Origin: Clostridia bacterium
Lineage (GTDB): Bacteria; Bacillota; Clostridia; Christensenellales; Borkfalkiaceae
Direction: 5' to 3'
Assembly (NCBI GenBank): GCA_017456055.1
Contig: JAFTKC010000006.1
Coordinates: 1 to 64,000 of the forward strand
Length of the DNA: 64,000 nucleotides
The notes under the pieces are model-generated. The model did not search any database and was not told where the DNA came from. It was given only the letters and a program-made list of their open reading frames with translations. Shown here in pieces: positions 24,874-61,213 of the stretch. Every line of letters starts with the position of its first letter. The stretch's first letter is position 1. The position numbers and the translations under genes were made by a program.

Positions 24874-26091
24874 ATGGAAAAGAAAGACATTAAAAAAGTT
24901 GTACTAGCATACTCGGGTGGATTAGATACTTCAATTATAATTCCCTGGTTAAAAGAAAATTATAACAACTGCGAAGTAGTAGCAGTTGCTGGCAACGTAG
25001 GTCAAAACGACGAACTAGACGGATTAGAAGAGAAGGCTCTAAAGACCGGTGCTTCTAAATTATACGTTTTAGACTTAACCGACGATTACGTAGATAACTA
25101 CATTATTCCATGCGTTAAGGCAGGCGCTACTTACGAAGAATATTTACTCGGTACTAGCCACGCTCGTCCTTGTATTGCAAAAGCGCTCGTTGATATCGCT
25201 ATCAAGGAAAATGCAGACGCTATTGCTCACGGTTGTACGGGTAAGGGAAACGACCAAGTTCGTTTTGAATTGTCAATCAAGCACTTTGCTCCTGACATGA
25301 AGATTATCGCTCCATGGCGTGAATGGGACATCAAGTCTAGAGATGAAGAAATCGAATATGCAGAGGCTCATAATATTCCACTAAAGATAAATAGAGAAAC
25401 CAACTATTCAAAAGATAAAAACTTATGGCACCTATCTCACGAAGGTTTAGATTTAGAAAATCCTGGCAACGAACCTTTATACGAAAAGGAAGGCTTCTTA
25501 GAATTGGGCGTTTCGCCAATCAAAGCACCTGATAAGCCAACCTACGTAGAAATCGAATTTGAAAAGGGCGCTCCTGTTGCTTTAGACGGCAAAAAGATGA
25601 GCGCAAAGGAAATCGTACTTGCCCTAAATAAAATCGGTGGAGAAAACGGCATAGGACTTCTTGATATCGTAGAAAATCGTCTAGTTGGTATGAAGAGTCG
25701 TGGCGTATACGAAACCCCAGGCGGAGCAATTTTATATAAAGCGCACGCAGTACTAGAAACCATTTGTCTTGACAAGATGACCATGCACGAAAAACAAAAG
25801 ATTGCTATCACCTTCGGTGAATTGGTTTACAACGGACAATGGTTTACCCCACTTAGAGAAGCGCTTTCGGCTTTCGTTGATAAAACTCAAGAGACCGTGA
25901 CTGGTAAAGTTAGATTAAAACTTTACAAGGGCAATATGATTAACGCAGGCGTTTGGAGTGACTACTCACTTTATAGCGAAGACTTAGCGTCGTTTGGCGA
26001 AAGTGATTACGATCAACACGATGCAGAAGGCTTTATCAACCTTTACGGTTTACCAATTAAAGTTTCGGCTTTAGCAAAAATCAAGAAATAA
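24874..26091 (+). CDS. argG: Argininosuccinate synthase
   Basis: Joins citrulline and aspartate with ATP to form argininosuccinate. The PP-loop [15 protein letters not shown] (about 11-25), the citrulline/aspartate-binding [27 protein letters not shown] and the [15 protein letters not shown] block are all present. Length 405 is normal. AAGGAAGTG precedes the ATG. It is followed 49 nt later by argH after a small hairpin, forming the last two steps of arginine synthesis. ArgR-like boxes upstream suggest arginine repression. Confidence 0.97.
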
Positions 26092-26098
26092 AAAATAG

Positions 26099-26123
26099 TT
26101 GCCGTGTCGTACGTACACGGCAA
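26099..26123 (+). other. Hairpin between argG and argH
   Basis: TTGCCGTGT / ACACGGCAA with a 7-nt loop, followed by TTACTTT. It may protect or partly terminate the message between the two genes. The argH ribosome binding site AGGAG lies directly after it. Confidence 0.5.
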
Positions 26124-26140
26124 TTACTTTAGGAGAAAAT

Positions 26141-27520
26141 ATGAAAAAAATGTGGGCAGGTCGCACGGACGGTGTGACGGATAAACTAGCAGACCAACTT
26201 AACTCTTCAATCGGTTTTGACCAAAGATTTTATAAAAACGATATAGAAGGCAGTATTGCGCACGCTAAAATGCTTGCTTTTAAAAATATCATTACCAAGG
26301 AAGAGGCGGATAAAATAGTCGAAGGTTTGCAAGGTATTTTAGCCGATATTGAAAGTGGAAAACTAGAAATAAATTTAAGCGCAGAAGATATTCACATGTT
26401 TGTTGAGGAAACTCTTACCGAAAGAATAGGTGAGACGGGTAAAAAACTTCATACTGCAAGAAGTAGAAACGACCAAGTGGCTTTAGATCTTAGATTATAC
26501 TTAAAAGACGAAATAGTTAAGATTGAAAAACTAGTTAAAGAGTTGGTTGCTACTATCGTTTATAAGGCAGAAGAATATAAAGATACCATAATGCCTGGAT
26601 ACACGCACTTACAAAGAGCGCAACCCGTCACTTTCGGTTTTCACCTTATGGCGTACGCAAATATGCTACTTCGTGACGTTCAAAGGTTAAACGACTGCCT
26701 AGATAGAGTAAATACTTCGCCAATAGGAAGTTGCGCTTTAGCGGGCACTACTTACGATACGGATAGATACTACGAGGCTAAACTTTTAGGTTTAGAATCC
26801 GTTTGCATAAACGCTATGGACGGCGTTTCGGATAGGGATTTCGTTATCGAATTTAACGCAGTATGCTCTATTTTAATGATGCACCTATCTAGGTTTTCCG
26901 AAGAGATTATTCTTTGGTCTAGTTGGGAATTTAAGTTCGTTGAACTTTCAGACGAATACACTACCGGCTCGTCTATTATGCCACAAAAGAAAAATCCCGA
27001 TATGGCAGAACTCGTTCGTGGTAAGACGGGTAGGGTATATGGGAATCTTATTTCTATATTGACCGTACTTAAGGGTCTTCCACTCGCTTACAATAAGGAT
27101 ATGCAAGAAGACAAGGAAGGAGTATTTGATACTATCGACACGGTTAAACTTTGTTTAGAAGTTTATATTTCAATGATTAAAACCTTAAAGGCAAACAAAG
27201 AAAATATGCTTTCAGCAGGGAAGAAAGGCTTTATAAACGCAACCGACCTTGCCGACTATTTGGTTAAAAAGGGTATGCCTTTCCGTTCAGCATATAAAAT
27301 CGTTGGGGAAACGGTTAGAAAGTGCACCGAGAGAAATATTACTTTAGAAAATTTAACGATAGATGAATATAAAGAAATCTCTCCATTATTTGAGAAGGAC
27401 GTTTATAAAGAAATTTCCTTAGAAACTTGTGTTAACAAGAGAATTTCAGTAGGTGGAACTAGCGTCAAGATGGTGGAAGAACACATATCCGACGTTAAAA
27501 AAATTCTCAACATTGAATAA
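26141..27520 (+). CDS. argH: Argininosuccinate lyase
   Basis: Splits argininosuccinate into arginine and fumarate. It has the fumarase/aspartase superfamily signature GSSIMPQKKNPD with its catalytic serine, plus HTARSRNDQVALDLRLY, MPGYTHLQRAQP and the KKGFINATDLADYLV C-terminal region. The frame is open from a TTG at 26099, but AGGAG at 26131-26135 precedes the ATG at 26141, which gives the normal start KKMWAGRTDG and 459 residues. Same operon as argG. Confidence 0.97.
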   Translation: MKKMWAGRTDGVTDKLADQLNSSIGFDQRFYKNDIEGSIAHAKMLAFKNIITKEEADKIVEGLQGILADIESGKLEINLSAEDIHMFVEETLTERIGETGKKLHTARSRNDQVALDLRLYLKDEIVKIEKLVKELVATIVYKAEEYKDTIMPGYTHLQRAQPVTFGFHLMAYANMLLRDVQRLNDCLDRVNTSPIGSCALAGTTYDTDRYYEAKLLGLESVCINAMDGVSDRDFVIEFNAVCSILMMHLSRFSEEIILWSSWEFKFVELSDEYTTGSSIMPQKKNPDMAELVRGKTGRVYGNLISILTVLKGLPLAYNKDMQEDKEGVFDTIDTVKLCLEVYISMIKTLKANKENMLSAGKKGFINATDLADYLVKKGMPFRSAYKIVGETVRKCTERNITLENLTIDEYKEISPLFEKDVYKEISLETCVNKRISVGGTSVKMVEEHISDVKKILNIE

Positions 27521-27531
27521 AATTAAAAATA

Positions 27532-27549
27532 ATTCATTAAAATATTCAT
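27532..27549 (+). promoter_or_regulatory. ArgR-box-like operator upstream of the amino-acid transporter
   Basis: An 18-nt near-palindrome ATTCATTAAAATATTCAT, the length and half sites of an ARG box, followed by another ATTCA at 27551. It lies about 60 nt upstream of the -35 box. Confidence 0.5.
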
Positions 27550-27607
27550 AATTCAATAAAAAACGAATAAAAAATATAAAATAATTTAAAAATTATGCAA
27601 AAAATCG

Positions 27608-27636
27608 TTGACAATGAATAAAAATGAGTATATAAT
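27608..27636 (+). promoter_or_regulatory. Promoter of the amino-acid ABC transporter operon
   Basis: Perfect TTGACA (27608-27613), 17-nt spacer and perfect TATAAT (27631-27636). A leader of about 65 nt follows, with AGGAG before the ATG. Confidence 0.9.
27613..27630 (+). promoter_or_regulatory. ArgR-box-like sequence inside the promoter spacer
   Basis: AATGAATAAAAATGAGTA fills the space between -35 and -10. A repressor bound here would block RNA polymerase directly. Similarity to the ARG box (AATGAATAA half) is by eye. Confidence 0.45.
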
Positions 27637-27708
27637 GAATCTCGTAATCAAGAGACGGAAACAAAAAAGGAAAACACAAAAATTTACCCGTCCAAAAGGA
27701 GAAGAAAA

Positions 27709-28527
27709 ATGAAAAAGATTTTATCACTAGTTTTAACCGGTTTATTGGCAATCGTTTGTTGCTTCAGTTTAACTGCTTGTGGTGGAAAGACTGTTAAAAT
27801 CGGTGTACAAGAGGGAACTACAAGTTTAATGTATGCTGAATGCTTAAAGGGTACTGAAGTTAGTTCGTTTACGACTTTCCCTCTTGCAGCAGAAGCAATG
27901 AAGAACGGCAACGTTGATTACGTTATGTGCGACAAAGCAACTGCAACGAGCATTTGCAACACTATCGACGGCATTAAATATATCGACATTGCATTATCTA
28001 CTGAATTCTACGGAATAGCAGTAGATAAAAATCAACCTGAACTTAATACTTCTATCAATGAAGTTTTGGCAAATAAGTCAACCGAAATTCAAGCAATCAT
28101 TGACAAATATATGGCTGGCGACGAGGCTAATTACGTTGGAGTGACTTCTGCTGAAAAGAATAACGATAACAAGGCAGGTCAATTAGTAGTTGCAACTAAC
28201 GCAGAATTTGCTCCATGGGAATACGTAAACGGCGACAAATATTATGGTATTGATATGGAAATTGCCCAAATTTTAGCAACTGAACTTGGCTTAGAATTAG
28301 TAATCGACGATATGGCTTTTGAAAGCGTTGTATCATCAGTTGGTAATCACGGTGTTGATATTGCTATGTCTGGTATTACTATTACTAATGAGCGTAAAGA
28401 AGTTGTTAATTTCTCAACGAGTTATTATACCGAATCAATCGTTCTTCTTTGCAAGGAAAATGATAATAGTTTTGCTTCTTCAGGTACGGTTGTTGACATT
28501 TTGAATATTCTTTGCAAAAACAAATAA
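27709..28527 (+). CDS. Amino-acid-binding lipoprotein of an ABC transporter, halves in reversed order
   Basis: The signal peptide ends in lipobox LTAC (C24), so it is a lipid-anchored solute-binding protein. The halves of the SBP_bac_3 fold are swapped. Residues about 29-140 (VKIGVQEGTTSLMYAE, EAMKNGNVDYVMCDKA, STEFYGIAVDK, IIDKYMAGD) match the second half of GlnH-type proteins. Residues about 165-255 (LVVATNAEFAPWEYVNGDKY, GIDMEIAQILATELGL, VDIAMSGITITNERK, VNFSTSYYTESIVLL) match the first half. A polar linker of about 20 residues joins them, and a 15-residue tail follows. It probably serves the permease and ATPase downstream; ArgR-like boxes suggest arginine or another basic amino acid. Confidence 0.88.
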   Translation: MKKILSLVLTGLLAIVCCFSLTACGGKTVKIGVQEGTTSLMYAECLKGTEVSSFTTFPLAAEAMKNGNVDYVMCDKATATSICNTIDGIKYIDIALSTEFYGIAVDKNQPELNTSINEVLANKSTEIQAIIDKYMAGDEANYVGVTSAEKNNDNKAGQLVVATNAEFAPWEYVNGDKYYGIDMEIAQILATELGLELVIDDMAFESVVSSVGNHGVDIAMSGITITNERKEVVNFSTSYYTESIVLLCKENDNSFASSGTVVDILNILCKNK

Positions 28528-28552
28528 TTAAAAACTAACGTAAAAGGTTATT

Positions 28553-28580
28553 AAAGGCTTAGTTTTGATACTAAGCCTTT
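28553..28580 (+). terminator. Intra-operon hairpin between binding protein and permease
   Basis: AAAGGCTTAGT / ACTAAGCCTTT, 11 bp, 6-nt loop, followed by AATTTGG rather than a strong T-tract. Probably a partial terminator or 3' stabiliser giving more binding protein than permease. Confidence 0.6.
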
Positions 28581-28595
28581 AATTTGGTAATTGAT

Positions 28596-29306
28596 ATGAA
28601 TAATGATTATGGATTGTTGTGGGAAAAGTTTACTAGTGCTCTCATAGATAAAAACGGCTATAAAATAGTGCTTGAAGGTTTGCTTAATACCCTACAAATT
28701 GCAGTAATAGGTTTACTTATAGGTATTATAATAGGTACGATTATAGCAATCATTAGGGTTATGCCGAAATATAAAGTTTTCCCAAGAATTTTAGATAAAA
28801 TTTGTGGGTGCTACGTTGAACTTTTTAGGGGTACTCCTATGATGGTTCAACTTCTAATAGGGTATAACGTTTTACTTCCTATACTTGGTATTAGTGTTGA
28901 TAGTGGACTTCCTGTTGCTATAGTTGTCTTCGGCTTAAATAGTAGCGCATACGTAAGCGAAATTATGCGTTCAGGTATTCAGTCAGTAGATGCAGGTCAA
29001 CTAGAAGCTGGCAGAGCGGTTGGATTATCTTACTGGACGACAATGTTTAGGATCGTAATACCTCAAGCCATAAAAAATATTCTTCCAACGCTCGGAAACG
29101 AATTTATCGTTTTGGTAAAAGAAACTTCGATAACGGGCTACGTTGCTACGATTGATTTAACAAGGGCGTTTACAAAACTTGGCAGTGATAGTATGTCGTA
29201 CGTTATCCCATATTTAATGCTTGGCGTAGCGTATCTTATTATCGTTTTACTTATCTCTTGGAGTGTAAGAACGTTAGAAAAAAAATTAAAAAAGAGTGAG
29301 AGATGA
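28596..29306 (+). CDS. Amino-acid ABC transporter permease (HisM/GlnP type)
   Basis: A 236-residue polytopic membrane protein of the polar amino-acid permease family. Visible are [18 protein letters not shown], the EAA-loop region [34 protein letters not shown], and [10 protein letters not shown]. The frame opens at a TTG (28584); the ATG at 28596 is a better start, although no clear ribosome binding site precedes either. It would form the membrane channel for the binding protein upstream and the ATPase directly downstream (1-nt gap). Confidence 0.92.
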
Positions 29307-29307
29307 T

Positions 29308-30147
29308 ATGGAAAATAAAGTCGTTTTATCAGTTCAAAAATTGAGTAAGCATTTTGGCGACAACCAAGTTTTAAAGGGCGTTAACTTAGATATTCGACAA
29401 GGTGATAAAATAGTTATAGTTGGCGCTTCCGGTTGTGGTAAGTCTACTTTTTTAAGATGTCTTAATTGCTTGGAAGATCCAACGGGTGGACACATATACT
29501 TTGATGGGGAAGACCTTGCCGATATGAAGGTGGACATTAACGTTCATCGTCAAAAAATCGGTATGGTGTTTCAAAATTTTAACCTTTTTAATAATCTAAC
29601 CGTTTTACAAAACGTCACGCTAGCGCCTATAATAATCGCTAAAAAGAAAATTAGAAAGATAAAAACAAAAAATTTCCTTACAAAGATAGGTAATTTCTTT
29701 ACGAGAGAGAAAGCGCCACTTCTTGAAATAAATCAAACTATTGAAGAGATAAAAGCCCAAGCGAACGCTAAGGCTATGGAACTTCTAAAAAAGATAGGGT
29801 TAGAAGAAAAGGCAAACGCTTATCCTTCAACTCTTTCGGGTGGACAAAAGCAGAGAATTGCAATCGTTAGAGCGCTTGCAATGGAGCCTGAAATTATGCT
29901 TTTTGACGAGCCGACATCAGCGCTTGATCCCGAAATGGTAGGAGAAGTTCTAAACGTTATGACCGACCTTGCAAAATCTGGTATGACTATGGTTATCGTC
30001 ACGCACGAAATGGGCTTTGCTAAAAACGTTGCAAATAGAGTGTTGTTTATGGACGAGGGCGTTATAAAAGAAGAGGCGTCTCCAGAAGAATTCTTCGGCA
30101 ATCCTAAAAACGAAAGACTTAAAGATTTTCTATCTAAAGTCTTATAA
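29308..30147 (+). CDS. Amino-acid ABC transporter ATPase (GlnQ type) with an insertion
   Basis: Walker [11 protein letters not shown]-loop VFQNFNLF, signature LSGGQKQR, Walker [15 protein letters not shown] and the H-loop VIVTHEMGF are all present. Compared with the roughly 240-residue GlnQ, this 279-residue protein carries about 35 extra, very basic residues after [11 protein letters not shown] (about residues 111-146), in the helical subdomain that contacts the permease. The frame opens with GTG at 29296; the ATG at 29308, one base after the permease stop, is preferred. It should power uptake of the amino acid captured by the upstream binding protein. Confidence 0.93.
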
Positions 30148-30950: not shown

Positions 30951-32903
30951 ATGAAGATGGCTAAATCCTATAAAATTGGTTTATTATTAACGGCGTTTAT
31001 TATTTCTTTAATGGCGTTTATTTTCTGTACGTCGGGGACTTCCGTTCTAGCGGCAACCCCTTCAGTTGCTAGCGAATATTTTTCGGGCACGGCAAAAGAA
31101 ATTTCTTTTAGTGAAGACGCTGTTAGCGCAAAAATGGAAAAAAACTCTACCTTAGAATTTTCAAATAGAGTAGTTTTAGATAATCTCGGTTTTGAACTTA
31201 AAACTGATTCTAATATTAAAAAGTTAGAATTATCTTTCTCTACCGATTCTTTCTATTCAAACGGCAACAAAACCGTTAATCAAGACGGAAGAGTAGAGTA
31301 TTTGACTGTAATCGACCACGCGTTAGTTATCGAGTTTAACGGCAATAACTTAACCGCAACTTTTAACGGACAAACGGAGTCGGCTACCCTTTCAGGAAAC
31401 TTAGAAGTTGCGTTTAAGGTTAGAGATAACGTTATATATGCATACGTTGAAGGTCAAGAAATCGTAAATGCAGAAGACGCTTATATGGTTCAAGACTTTG
31501 ACCTTTGCCCAGCAGAGAATTTAACCTTTAAGACTTTAGAACTGAACGAAAACGCAAATGAAACTAAGTTTTTAATGCTCAGTGTTGATCAAGATACTAC
31601 GGACAATACTGGCTTAAGAAAACAATCTTTTAAGTTAAACGGAAACGACCAAATTGATAAACTTGCCGTTCCAATGGCTACCGTTAACGGCTCTGCTTAT
31701 AACGACGGCGTAATTTATATGAAAAAGTTCGTTAAGAACACCTTAGTAGTTAGCAGTTTCTCAGTTTTTGGTGATATAAGTGCTTCAAACCTTTACCTAT
31801 CTAAAGTAAACGATACCGATAAGGTTTGGATTGAAGATTCTAATAGTGCAAAAGCGCTTACCTTTACTGAAGTTGGTTCACATCAAGTTCAAATCAAGTG
31901 TAGTTTAATTAACTACAGCAATATGGTTTTCAAAACTCTTGATGTAGAAGTTTACGAAAGTGACGACGTTGCTCCAACTTATCTTTCTTCAACCGATCCT
32001 GAGTACGCAGATCTCTACGCTAAATATTTAGAGTCTGTTGATGCGGCTACTAAAGTGTACGATAAAGATTTAGGCAAGGAAGTTTATATTAAACTCGGTG
32101 ATAACTATCAAGTTCCATCACTAAGAGAATTGGTTAAAGATAACTATATTTCTTACGATAACTTAAATAAAACCGTTTATTATAAAACACCTGCTAACGA
32201 CACCGCGTCTACTACGGGTGATAAGATTCCTGTTAACTTTGCAGGTGACTATACCTACTACGTAGTATTTAGTGATAAAGATACTAACGCAATGGAAGTT
32301 GACGATTTCTTCACTACCGACGAAAACGACGAAAATGCGATTGTTGAAGGTAAGTATTTTGCTTTCGTATTTAGTTTCCATATTGAAGATCAATCGGCTT
32401 TCACTATTGAAGGACAAGTAAAACAAGGTACGGGATACGTTGGTACACAATACTCTGCAACCAACTTCAATATTAACGCAAGCGACTATAGTGAAACTTA
32501 CACCTTATCTTACAACCCTAAAAAGAACGCAACTTCTAACGACGAAGGTTGGGTGACTATCATTAAAAAGGCAGACTTAACCGACTCTTACGTAAATGAT
32601 GACGTTTCTGCCGACGAAGTTAATAGCATTAACTACGATGGAAGAATTACCTTTACGCCTCACAAGATAGGAACTTACAGAATTACTTGCGAAATTACTT
32701 CGGACAACACTAGCCGTTCGGCAATGGCTGAAACCTTTATCGACGTAGTTGATTCTACTGAAGTTAAACCTCACGTTCCACTAACCACTCGTCAAATTTG
32801 GGCTATCGTGTTCTTAAGCGTTGGCGGATTGTGTTTGGTAGGCATCATCACTCTAATCTTTATTAAACCTAAAGAAAAGACTGATGCTGAAGATAACGAC
32901 TAA
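30951..32903 (+). CDS. Secreted surface protein with C-terminal membrane anchor, unknown function
   Basis: 650 residues. An N-terminal signal peptide ends around TSVLAATP (cleavage after VLA). A long beta-rich ectodomain follows, with no cysteine-rich or enzymatic motif. The C-terminus is a single hydrophobic helix (AIVFLSVGGLCLVGIITLIF) followed by the charged tail KPKEKTDAEDND, so the protein sits type I in the membrane. The first third (NLGFELKTDSNIKKLELSF, VIEFNGNNLTATFNG) reads like a jelly-roll carbohydrate-binding or laminin-G-like module, and later parts like Ig-type repeats. Both are impressions only. It has its own promoter and terminator. Confidence 0.75.
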   Translation: MKMAKSYKIGLLLTAFIISLMAFIFCTSGTSVLAATPSVASEYFSGTAKEISFSEDAVSAKMEKNSTLEFSNRVVLDNLGFELKTDSNIKKLELSFSTDSFYSNGNKTVNQDGRVEYLTVIDHALVIEFNGNNLTATFNGQTESATLSGNLEVAFKVRDNVIYAYVEGQEIVNAEDAYMVQDFDLCPAENLTFKTLELNENANETKFLMLSVDQDTTDNTGLRKQSFKLNGNDQIDKLAVPMATVNGSAYNDGVIYMKKFVKNTLVVSSFSVFGDISASNLYLSKVNDTDKVWIEDSNSAKALTFTEVGSHQVQIKCSLINYSNMVFKTLDVEVYESDDVAPTYLSSTDPEYADLYAKYLESVDAATKVYDKDLGKEVYIKLGDNYQVPSLRELVKDNYISYDNLNKTVYYKTPANDTASTTGDKIPVNFAGDYTYYVVFSDKDTNAMEVDDFFTTDENDENAIVEGKYFAFVFSFHIEDQSAFTIEGQVKQGTGYVGTQYSATNFNINASDYSETYTLSYNPKKNATSNDEGWVTIIKKADLTDSYVNDDVSADEVNSINYDGRITFTPHKIGTYRITCEITSDNTSRSAMAETFIDVVDSTEVKPHVPLTTRQIWAIVFLSVGGLCLVGIITLIFIKPKEKTDAEDND

Positions 32904-58756: not shown

Positions 58757-61213
58757 TTACTTAAATTTTTTTAGGATAAAGAAACTTGCCGTTCCACAAA
58801 TGCTAGTGATTACCGCTAAAATAATAAGGATATTTCTAACTGCTTGATTTGGAGTGTTAATAAGAGCCGAACTTGCAATAAAGCCGTCTTTCCAACCATC
58901 ATCGTAATATTTAATAGTTAAAACTCCGTTTTTGTTTTCATATACTCTAACCGTTGAAGATTCAATATCGCAAATTTTTTGGGTTAGATCTTTGTCTTGA
59001 TAAACGGCAGTTGCTCTAATTTGCTCGAAAGAATAACTTTCAAGTTGCTTGTTTTGACTTAAAACTTCCACCGTAAAGTTTATTGGAACGTAGCAAGAAA
59101 TTTGCTTTCCGTCAATTTCCACCGAGCAGTAATAAAAGTCCATATCGAGCACCTTAACCGACTCCGTTGGCGAAATCTTAGTGTGTTTATTAAGCATTAA
59201 CTTCTGCCCGTCTAGAGTAATTGCGTGGTCGGTGTTTAGTGTGATAAGCGGGGTGTAGTAGGCGTGTACGGTGGTGTTTGTAAACGCTTCTTTAGGAGCG
59301 GTGGTCTTTTCGATTTGGCTAACCGTTCCTTCTAGTTTATTAGTTAAATACAAGCCGTATTGATCGCCAAGTAGGTATAAATTTAATTTGTTTTCGCAAG
59401 GAACAGGGATTTCCTTTAATAGTAGATATTCGTTTTTAGGACTAACCGCGTCTAAATACTTAAATCCGTTGTCAAACTCTACTGAATATACGCCTGCATC
59501 TACGTTTACTGCGCATCTAGATAGGGAGTTGTTTGGCGCTTGTTCGCCCGTAAAGGTTAAATCGCTAGGCGCTACTATCGAAGAAACGGAGATATTGTCC
59601 ACAACGTCTGTTGAGTATATATACTCTTCATTATTATTTACAAAATATATGGTAGAAGTATCGAGATTTAAGCAAAAATCTTTTACGCTACTTTGACCGA
59701 TTGGATAACTCTTCCACTCTCTCGTCACTGAATTAAGACTTGAAATATCGTATCCGTTGCAGAAATACATTCTTCCACTTAGGTCGGTTATTATCTCTTT
59801 TGCGCCCTTTCTTTCCGAGAAAAATTCAGGCGTGCCGTTTTCAAGATGAGAATCTTTATATACGCCCGAAGCGTTAACTATTAGATAATTTCCTAAAGTG
59901 TCAACTTCAATGAGTTCGTAAGCAAAATTATAGTCTTTAGTTAGATTTATAGAGCCGTCGCTTTCGCTAACTTTGTATACTTTTGACGCCGTTAGGTGAT
60001 TAGTTAGTATGTAAAAATATCCGTTTTTATAACAAATATCTTTAACGTTTCCCTCTATTTCAAGGTCTACCTTTGATTGCTTGTTTATATCGTATATAAA
60101 AGCAGAATTACCTTTTCCACAAACCAAAATCATTTTGCCCATTGCAAATTGTTCCGGCGCGTCGTTTAAAAACAGGTTGGTGAAAGCGTTTTCCGTATAA
60201 TCTATCTTATCGGTGTCTATAATGGTTAATTTATGCTCGTCTAAAACGGCGAGTATATTTTTATATCTCTCTATTGAAAGTGGCTCGGTTATTCTATTGT
60301 AAGCCGTTTTGCCCTTAGCGATTGCCTTTCCCGTGAAAACTAAGCCGTTATCTTTAATTTCAAATTCTTGAACGCTGTCGTTTAGTTTATCAGTCACTAT
60401 AACTAGGTTGTTAGAGAAAGTCACGTCGGTAGGGGTGAGCACCTTTCCTAAATCGTATTTAGATTCTGGAAGAGTCAACTCTTTACTTTCATTATCGGTA
60501 AAGGAATACCTAAAAATCTTTCCGTCGTAAATATAAAATAGCGCGTCTTCTCTAGCAACCATTTTTAGTGGAACTAGATTTTCTAGCACCTTTTGATTTT
60601 CAAAATCACTAAAATCACGTGAGCAAATCTTTCCGTCGCTTATGTAGAATACACTCTTTGAGTTAAGCGCTACAGTTAGGTCGGTTGAGATGGAAAAAGG
60701 AGTGAAGAGCATATTGGTTATAGCTCCGCCACTAGCCTTATATAAAAGCAAATTAGTGCCGTAGGTAGTGGCTAAAATTTCGCCGTTAAAACTGAACGAA
60801 GAGCCACCTATAGAAGAAGAGCCGAAAGATAACGGGCTAACGGCAAAACTAGTTAAATTAACCTTATAAATAGAGCCGTTGTCCGATAAAATTAGGCTAT
60901 TATCGTCAAACCTTTCTACGTGCTTTAGTGAAACAAAATTGTAGTCTGCTTGTGATAAAAGTTTATATTTGCCATCTTTATAAACTACGAGTGAATTGTT
61001 TTCTTGAACGATTGCAGTCACTTCGTCGTCCATATAAGTATTAACTGGGCTAGTTAGGGCGTAAGAATCCCTAGGGGATATAGGCATAATCCTATTTGAC
61101 GGCTCTTCTGCTAACACCTTAGAAGTGGTGGGTAGCAATAGAGCGCCTGCTAACGCCGTAAAGGTCAAAAATAAACTTATTAAAATGCTTGATAGTATAA
61201 TTTTTTTCTTCAT
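58757..61213 (-). CDS. Large secreted, tail-anchored protein (beta-propeller and SH3-like candidate)
   Basis: 818 residues, not a known family to me. The signal peptide ends near TSKVLAEE. About 550 residues of short repeating strands with recurrent 'visual' patterns (YKDGKYKLLS, SDNGSIYKVN, FYISDGKICSRDF, FYIYDGKIFRYSF, YFVNNNEEYIYS) suggest beta-propeller blades. The C-terminal 170 residues (HAYYTPLITLNTDHAITLDG, WKDGFIASSALI) resemble SH3b repeats. It ends in one helix (NILIILAVITSICGTASFFIL) and KKFK, so it is a type I membrane protein. Same layout as the gene at 62055-62783. It has its own promoter. Confidence 0.75.
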   Translation of the reverse strand: MKKKIILSSILISLFLTFTALAGALLLPTTSKVLAEEPSNRIMPISPRDSYALTSPVNTYMDDEVTAIVQENNSLVVYKDGKYKLLSQADYNFVSLKHVERFDDNSLILSDNGSIYKVNLTSFAVSPLSFGSSSIGGSSFSFNGEILATTYGTNLLLYKASGGAITNMLFTPFSISTDLTVALNSKSVFYISDGKICSRDFSDFENQKVLENLVPLKMVAREDALFYIYDGKIFRYSFTDNESKELTLPESKYDLGKVLTPTDVTFSNNLVIVTDKLNDSVQEFEIKDNGLVFTGKAIAKGKTAYNRITEPLSIERYKNILAVLDEHKLTIIDTDKIDYTENAFTNLFLNDAPEQFAMGKMILVCGKGNSAFIYDINKQSKVDLEIEGNVKDICYKNGYFYILTNHLTASKVYKVSESDGSINLTKDYNFAYELIEVDTLGNYLIVNASGVYKDSHLENGTPEFFSERKGAKEIITDLSGRMYFCNGYDISSLNSVTREWKSYPIGQSSVKDFCLNLDTSTIYFVNNNEEYIYSTDVVDNISVSSIVAPSDLTFTGEQAPNNSLSRCAVNVDAGVYSVEFDNGFKYLDAVSPKNEYLLLKEIPVPCENKLNLYLLGDQYGLYLTNKLEGTVSQIEKTTAPKEAFTNTTVHAYYTPLITLNTDHAITLDGQKLMLNKHTKISPTESVKVLDMDFYYCSVEIDGKQISCYVPINFTVEVLSQNKQLESYSFEQIRATAVYQDKDLTQKICDIESSTVRVYENKNGVLTIKYYDDGWKDGFIASSALINTPNQAVRNILIILAVITSICGTASFFILKKFK

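What the first reader, a model, noticed from the sequence alone, without database searches (positions are those of the whole stretch)
27709..28527. Amino-acid-binding lipoprotein with its two lobes encoded in reversed order (natural circular permutation)
Seen: after the lipobox the protein begins with motifs that are normally in the second half of GlnH/LAO-type proteins (VKIGVQEGTTS, GNVDYVMCDKA, EFYGIAVDK, IIDKY). Only then come the motifs that normally open the mature protein (LVVATNAEFAPWEYV, GIDMEIAQILA, SGITITNERK). The new N-terminus falls at the hinge crossover, and a polar linker joins the old ends. All core motifs are kept once, so this is not a fusion of two proteins or a truncation. 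The neighbouring permease and ATPase look functional, so the permuted receptor is probably used. I am not aware of a described family of this kind.
Basis: partly seen in the sequence, partly recalled or inferred. Interest (0 to 1): 0.8.

Follow-up and report, generated by a model that had tools for sequence, protein, structure and literature searches.

The report
Transporter receptor with rotated lobe order
A gut bacterium's amino-acid uptake receptor is encoded with its two lobes in rotated order, and relatives in the same class of bacteria use all three possible rotations of the same protein, so evolution appears to have moved the ends of this receptor several times.

Summary
The 272-aa lipoprotein at 27709-28527 is an amino-acid substrate-binding protein (PF00497 type) whose segments run lobe 2, lobe 1b, lobe 1a (2-1b-1a) instead of 1a-2-1b, each once. 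It is not an assembly error: five separately named MAGs encode collinear relatives (56-83% identity), with dN/dS 0.11-0.12 against the nearest two. Pocket positions are kept, permease and ATPase genes follow, and the best of five AlphaFold models has pLDDT 87.

The larger result lies outside the window. Relatives in the same class (named ones are titled Clostridia) use all three rotations: 2-1b-1a (52 distinct proteins), 1b-1a-2 (61) and canonical 1a-2-1b (34). Brought to one order, proteins of different rotation are up to 69% identical and interleave in trees. AU tests reject a single origin of either permuted form, on the whole protein and on each half. By segment profiles, cuts fall at the two hinge crossovers.

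Natural permutation is known in other binding proteins (Treponema MglB-2; glycine-betaine-binding proteins). For the amino-acid family I found none in nine paper searches or the 60 best PDB matches. Ligand unknown. Verdict: real, probably functional, a new variant of a known kind.

The parts
27608..27636 (+). sigma-70-like promoter TTGACA-17-TATAAT upstream of the receptor gene
   Evidence: 12 of 12 consensus match; a consensus match, not a mapped start
27709..28527 (+). circularly permuted amino-acid substrate-binding lipoprotein, 272 aa, order signal/lipobox - lobe 2 - lobe 1b - linker - lobe 1a - tail
   Evidence: collinear relatives
27709..27780 (+). lipoprotein signal peptide up to and including lipobox Cys24
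   Evidence: sequence; C24 invariant in the 10 aligned proteins, window included
27787..27993 (+). lobe 2 segment (residues 27-95), normally the middle of the protein; GTT at 36-38, Asp75
   Evidence: segment HMM 30-89, E 7e-24; PDB 6svf from chain residue 118
27994..28113 (+). lobe 1b segment with the hinge-2 strand (residues 96-135), normally the C-terminus
   Evidence: segment HMM 96-135, E 7e-18
28114..28179 (+). linker (residues 136-157) joining old C-terminus to old N-terminus
   Evidence: between the 1b and 1a HMM matches; 18-33 residues, median 22, in the 47 unfused 2-1b-1a proteins, window included
28180..28449 (+). lobe 1a segment (residues 158-247), normally the N-terminus; Arg229
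   Evidence: PF00497 159-253; segment HMM 158-247, E 4e-39
28450..28524 (+). C-terminal tail (residues 248-272), counterpart of the inter-lobe segment of relatives
   Evidence: junction comparison; helix 238-245 of the mature-protein model
28584..29306 (+). amino-acid ABC transporter permease
   Evidence: PF00528, E 1.1e-26, whole profile
29296..30147 (+). ABC transporter ATPase
   Evidence: PF00005, E 3.9e-37, whole profile

Best explanation
The gene makes a working lipid-anchored amino-acid receptor of an ABC importer whose chain is a circular permutation of the PF00497-type fold, cut at hinge 1 and closed by a linker between the old ends. It folds into the usual two lobes, binds an amino acid in the cleft and hands it to the permease and ATPase encoded next to it; only the chain order and the tether point (lobe 2 instead of lobe 1) differ. 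Shown: segment order, conservation of order, purifying selection, conserved pocket positions, neighbouring genes. Inferred: folding as modelled, ligand binding, transport, ligand identity. In this class of bacteria it is one of three rotations of one three-segment ring (1a, 2, 1b), and the ends have moved between the two hinge crossovers more than once, most likely by tandem duplication followed by trimming (inferred; no intermediate seen).
For: Order by profile and by PDB chain. Nine other proteins with essentially full collinear alignment, 32-83% identity, among them proteins of five named MAGs (L036 is identical to L005). dN/dS 0.113 and 0.117 against L033 and L034. Best model pLDDT 87.2, pTM 0.79. 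Arg229 in 147 of 147 and the Asp75 position in 143 of 147 proteins of the three rotations. Permease and ATPase downstream in 44 of 47 unfused 2-1b-1a and 52 of 60 unfused 1b-1a-2 proteins. Proteins of different rotation are close once brought to one order: 69% of 223 (L081/L117), 64% of 248 (L105/L113), 62% of 245 (L045/L058), 60% of 221 (L016/L062). Canonical L113 ends in a tail homologous to the start of the linker in permuted L105. One origin rejected in 103 rows: form A p 6e-5, form B p 8e-6, A+B together p 1e-44; in half-protein trees of 147 rows, A p 0.010 and 0.017, B p 2e-5 and 1e-60.
Against: No ligand or transport data. No permutation-aware structural alignment. Mean pLDDT of the five models was 87, 76, 75, 57 and 55, and the canonical control model failed. 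Trees are short-search trees on 217-249 columns (halves 95 and 108, flagged as few) with many open forks; AU p for form A in the halves is only 0.01-0.02. For several proteins the two halves have different nearest rows (L012, L017, L018, L020, L058, L109, L110), so some recombination between receptors is not excluded. No single receptor with a duplicated segment was found.
Confidence: 0.88

Rival explanations
1. Assembly or binning artefact: the gene was rearranged in this one assembly.
For: The window lies in a draft assembly of 26 contigs, 93.74% complete.
Against: Same order at 83% and 82% identity in L033 (sheep colon) and L034 (water buffalo caecum), and in seven further aligned proteins.
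Confidence: 0.01
2. Chimera: halves of two different binding-protein genes were fused, rather than one protein being rotated.
For: Multi-receptor fusions exist in the order (L176-L180). Path lengths in the two half trees correlate only moderately (r 0.64), and several proteins have different nearest rows in the two halves (L012, L017, L018, L020, L058, L109, L110).
Against: In the clearest cases the nearest rows of another rotation are the same kind in both halves: L019 with L083/L084, L113 with 1b-1a-2 rows, L081 with canonical rows. Identity over the whole rotated length reaches 69%. The window protein's nearest rows are L033 and L034 in both halves.
Confidence: 0.07
3. One ancient permutation per form, with the interleaving in trees caused by tree error.
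For: Short proteins, long branches, many open forks.
Against: AU tests reject one clade for A and for B on the whole protein and on both halves. Cut points within form A differ by roughly 10-20 residues between groups: L010, L059, L062, L063 and L067 open with the inter-lobe segment (DDLPGKTIGVQ and alike), whereas the window group opens at KTVKIGVQ and keeps that segment as its tail.
Confidence: 0.1
4. Decaying or non-functional copy.
For: None found.
Against: dN/dS 0.11-0.12, intact lipobox, conserved pocket, whole-profile neighbours, consensus promoter.
Confidence: 0.01

Closest known systems
GlnH / LAO / ArgBP-type amino-acid substrate-binding proteins (Pfam PF00497)
   Same: The three segments, pocket positions and operon partners; E 3.9e-25 to PF00497, matches in separate stretches to 6svf and 6h30
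   Different: Chain order rotated; 105.7 bits of the 303 asked by the GlnH model and 104.2 of 256.35 for the LAO model
TpMglB-2 (Tp0684), Treponema glucose-binding lipoprotein, proposed 'Type Ic / Cluster Bc' (PMC4990184, passages seen)
   Same: Natural circular permutation of a tethered binding protein, with relatives in Gram-positive gut bacteria according to the paper
   Different: Sugar-binding Type I (Cluster B) fold, different cut; the passages seen describe one rotated form
Glycine-betaine-binding proteins incl. OpuAC (2b4l), permuted among themselves and to molybdate-binding proteins and CysB (PMC2395249, passages seen)
   Different: Different sequence family and ligand; the relation there was seen by structure at under 24% identity, here up to 69% identity between rotations
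GlnPQ tandem receptor domains (6h30)
   Same: The only chain among the 60 best-listed of 91 PDB matches that spans the 1b-linker-1a junction; a tandem array could be the precursor of either rotation
   Different: Two complete canonical domains in tandem

Membership tests
PF00497 SBP_bac_3 (amino-acid SBPs) | profile match above gathering score | tested here: met
   88.6 bits against 26.4, through the 1a segment only
PF00497 SBP_bac_3 (amino-acid SBPs) | canonical segment order 1a-2-1b | tested here: not met
   2-1b-1a; filed as a permuted relative, not a canonical member
PF00497 SBP_bac_3 (amino-acid SBPs) | pocket Arg in lobe 1 and Asp in lobe 2 (roles recalled from GlnBP) | tested here: met
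   R229 and D75; 147 of 147 and 143 of 147
PF00497 SBP_bac_3 (amino-acid SBPs) | binds an amino acid and feeds an ABC importer | not testable with these tools
   operon context only
GlnH equivalog (NCBIfam NF007029) | curated cut-off 303 bits | tested here: not met
   105.7 bits
OpuAC-type betaine-binding proteins | match to a sequence family other than PF00497 in Pfam | tested here: not met
   Pfam at E 0.001 lists only PF00497 and PF10613
OpuAC-type betaine-binding proteins | same chain topology | tested here: inconclusive
TpMglB-2-like Type Ic SBPs | Type I sugar-binding fold with permuted N lobe | not tested
   paper passages only; sequence matches point to PF00497

The most novel reading that the evidence does not exclude
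In this class of bacteria the amino-acid receptor behaves as a ring of three segments whose ends hop between two hinge crossovers: all three rotations coexist within single family-level groups, arise repeatedly and perhaps revert, so the position of the termini is an evolvable trait (tether point, fusion to the permease) rather than a fixed property of the fold.
Probability: 0.65. Interest if true: 0.85.

Novelty: new variant of a known kind. Interest (0 to 1): 0.74.

Why it matters
Circular permutation is usually inferred between distant proteins from structures. Here proteins up to 69% identical differ in rotation, and all three rotations of one fold were found within six family-level groups, so the steps, selective effects and folding consequences of moving termini become testable on natural pairs. 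The Pfam and NCBIfam profiles matched only one part of this receptor in order, so annotation by profile coverage may miss or mis-score such proteins. Natural permutants may also help biosensor design.

Tried and rejected
Assembly artefact: rejected by independent records. Chimera of two receptors: tested with half trees, not favoured but not excluded for every protein. Single origin of either form: rejected. My first classification, BLAST with two half-queries, mislabelled 1b-1a-2 proteins as canonical or as 2-1b-1a; it was replaced by three-segment HMMs. Foldseek against the PDB gave matches with E down to 2.0e-07 but TM-scores of only 0.28-0.56 in the 50 listed rows, mostly from other families; not used as evidence. 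A control model of a canonical relative (L038 with L039) failed (pLDDT 46.7), so no canonical-versus-permuted structural comparison was made. The class-wide junction search lists only matches at E 1e-26 or better and the phylum-wide one only at 1e-41 or better, so weaker members are not seen. Prophage context: eight window ORFs between 41 and 58 kb had no PHROGs match at E 0.001; two of them are SecY and RNA polymerase alpha. Rfam at gathering scores found only two tRNAs in the window. Ligand idea citrulline because of argG/argH next door: weakened, since the ornithine carbamoyltransferase model passes its cut-off in 5 of 5 genomes examined; argB does not pass in the window's genome and G031 but does in G010, G034 and G008.

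Absence in print rests on the paper searches in an open-licence library; apart from passages of four papers I saw only search listings with abstract openings.

Full report
Observation. The ORF 27709-28527 encodes a 272-aa lipoprotein. Pfam's PF00497 matches residues 159-253 only. PDB chain 6svf matches the protein in two blocks in reverse order (query 156-254 to 9-107; query 26-135 to 118-227). I built profile HMMs for three segments, 1a, 2 and 1b, the parts of the chain before, between and after the two hinge crossovers, from the fetched proteins themselves. In the window protein they lie in the order 2 (30-89), 1b (96-135), 1a (158-247), each once. The GlnH and LAO models of NCBIfam stay far below their cut-offs.

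Not an artefact. A search of 61 genomes (own and relatives) gave four further near-full-length collinear matches at 46-59% identity, and a scan of named genome contigs gave five at 57-82% best-segment identity, from sheep colon (two), water-buffalo, yak and goat caecum MAGs titled 'Clostridia bacterium'; its two other hits, L038 and L039, are canonical. L036 and L005 are identical proteins. The alignment of ten proteins includes L010, from another family-level group of the order, at 32% identity. Against L033 and L034 dN/dS is 0.113 and 0.117. Permease and ATPase genes follow at once and do so in the nearest relatives. A 12-of-12 sigma-70-like promoter lies upstream.

Three rotations. Applied to all ORFs of 100 aa or more in 180 loci, the segment HMMs gave, among 155 distinct ORFs with a 1a segment, 61 in order 1b-1a-2 (form B here), 52 in order 2-1b-1a (form A, the window's), 34 canonical 1a-2-1b (form C), two 1a-2, and six with several receptor domains. 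Most of these loci were chosen as hits to permuted profiles, so the numbers are not frequencies. Form A was seen in 23 family-level groups and form B in 20; six groups (f1, f3, f6, f23, f24, f32) hold all three forms. In 391 genomes of the class, 58 of the listed rows cover the 1b-linker-1a junction from position 1-6 to 157-158 of 158 without a stop; the 42 distinct class-scan proteins from L129 to L174 in the segment table were all A or B. In 299 genomes drawn from the phylum, 3 matched at E 1e-41 or better: the window's own genome and two others of its class.

Same protein, different rotation. Brought to one order, L081 (B) and L117 (C) are 69% identical over 223 positions, L105 (B) and L113 (C) 64% over 248, L045 (A) and L058 (B) 62% over 245, L016 (C) and L062 (A) 60% over 221. 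The C-terminal tail of canonical L113 (IINSFFDGTADYTYTNPA) is homologous to the first part of the linker of permuted L105 (IINSFFDGTATFEYTNPA), and the tail of canonical L019 to the linker of L083 (around GEKVGY); in these cases the linker is the old C-terminal tail joined to the old N-terminus. By these HMMs the ends of the 113 permuted proteins lie at hinge 1 (form A) or hinge 2 (form B). Within A they differ: in the window's group the inter-lobe segment stays at the C-terminus, in L010, L059, L062, L063 and L067 it opens the protein.

Several origins. On 103 proteins (the divergent L002 and chains over 400 aa left out) the labels A, B and C need 13 changes, the least possible being 2; starred branches alone force 4, 7 and 7 for A, B and C. 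One clade is rejected for A (p 6e-5), B (p 8e-6) and A+B (p 1e-44). On 147 proteins the count is 17, and starred branches force 4, 6 and 6; L027, counted as B in the smaller set, was dropped there because its 1b segment was no longer recognised. The 1a half (95 columns) and the 2+1b half (108 columns) were tested apart: A is rejected with p 0.010 and 0.017, B with p 2e-5 and 1e-60. The trees are of the short-search kind with many open forks, so the exact number and the direction of the changes are not established. Of the 20 proteins whose neighbours I printed, the clearest cases agree between the halves (L019 with L083/L084, L081 with canonical rows, L113 with 1b-1a-2 rows, the window protein with L033/L034), but L012, L017, L018, L020, L058, L109 and L110 have different nearest rows in the two halves, and path lengths correlate with r 0.64. 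Recombination between receptors is thus not excluded for some.

Function. Positions that contact the ligand in GlnBP (roles recalled) are kept across rotations: Arg229 in 147 of 147, the Asp75 position in 143 of 147, the Thr37 position in 141 of 147. Permease and ATPase genes both follow in 44 of 47 unfused A, 52 of 60 unfused B and 14 of 34 C proteins; many C loci were fetched with short flanks, which lowers the last number. Permuted domains are also fused to permeases: form A in L104 (two proteins), L152, L154 and L157, form B in L079; L176, L177, L178 and L180 look like arrays of two to four permuted domains ahead of a permease, with some segments not recognised. The ligand is unknown. In the window the operon follows argG and argH; in L033 and L034 it lies just upstream of them. 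An arginine-pathway amino acid is a guess.

Mechanism of origin (inferred). Tandem duplication of the receptor domain, joined through its ends, followed by loss of segments from both ends gives either rotation; tandem receptors such as GlnPQ exist (6h30). No single receptor with a duplicated segment was found among the 147, so this step is not shown.

Known and new. TpMglB-2 is a circularly permuted glucose-binding lipoprotein with relatives in gut Gram-positives (PMC4990184, passages). Glycine-betaine-binding proteins, molybdate-binding proteins and CysB form a permutation family seen by structure (PMC2395249, passages). The CIRPIN preprint (PMC12667903) holds none of the words periplasmic, transporter, substrate-binding or solute (word search), and the EgtUC paper (PMC9732360) uses 'permuted' once, for GFP (passages). 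Among the 60 best-listed of 91 PDB sequences matched by the junction profile, only the GlnPQ tandem 6h30 spans the junction. Nine paper searches listed no title or abstract opening that reports a naturally permuted PF00497-type protein; most subscription papers are not in that library. I therefore call it a new variant of a known kind; the repeated rotation within one family is the surprising part.

Noticed in passing
L104, L152, L154, L157, L079 (coordinates): Permuted receptor domains fused to the permease in one chain of 499-529 aa: 2-1b-1a in four loci (five proteins), 1b-1a-2 in one.
   Followed up: partly
L106, L176, L177, L178, L179, L180 (coordinates): Large proteins of 580-1255 aa with several receptor domains, apparently in permuted order; all but L106 also carry a permease part (L179 also ATPase parts). 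L106 runs off its contig.
   Followed up: partly
window 24874-30147; L033 5001-10510; L034 5001-10321: The receptor operon lies after argG-argH in the window but before argG-argH in the two nearest relatives: linkage kept, order swapped.
   Followed up: partly
whole genome G000: No argB model match above cut-off in the window's genome and G031, though the ornithine carbamoyltransferase model passes in both; G010, G034 and G008 have argB. Draft genomes, so absence is tentative.
   Followed up: partly
window 30951-32903 (+) and 58757-61213 (-): Two long ORFs (650 and 818 aa) without a Pfam match at E 0.001.
   Followed up: no
G000:C7:624-908 (L002): The genome's other receptor-like hit is divergent; only 1a and a weak 2 segment were recognised, in canonical order.
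   Followed up: no
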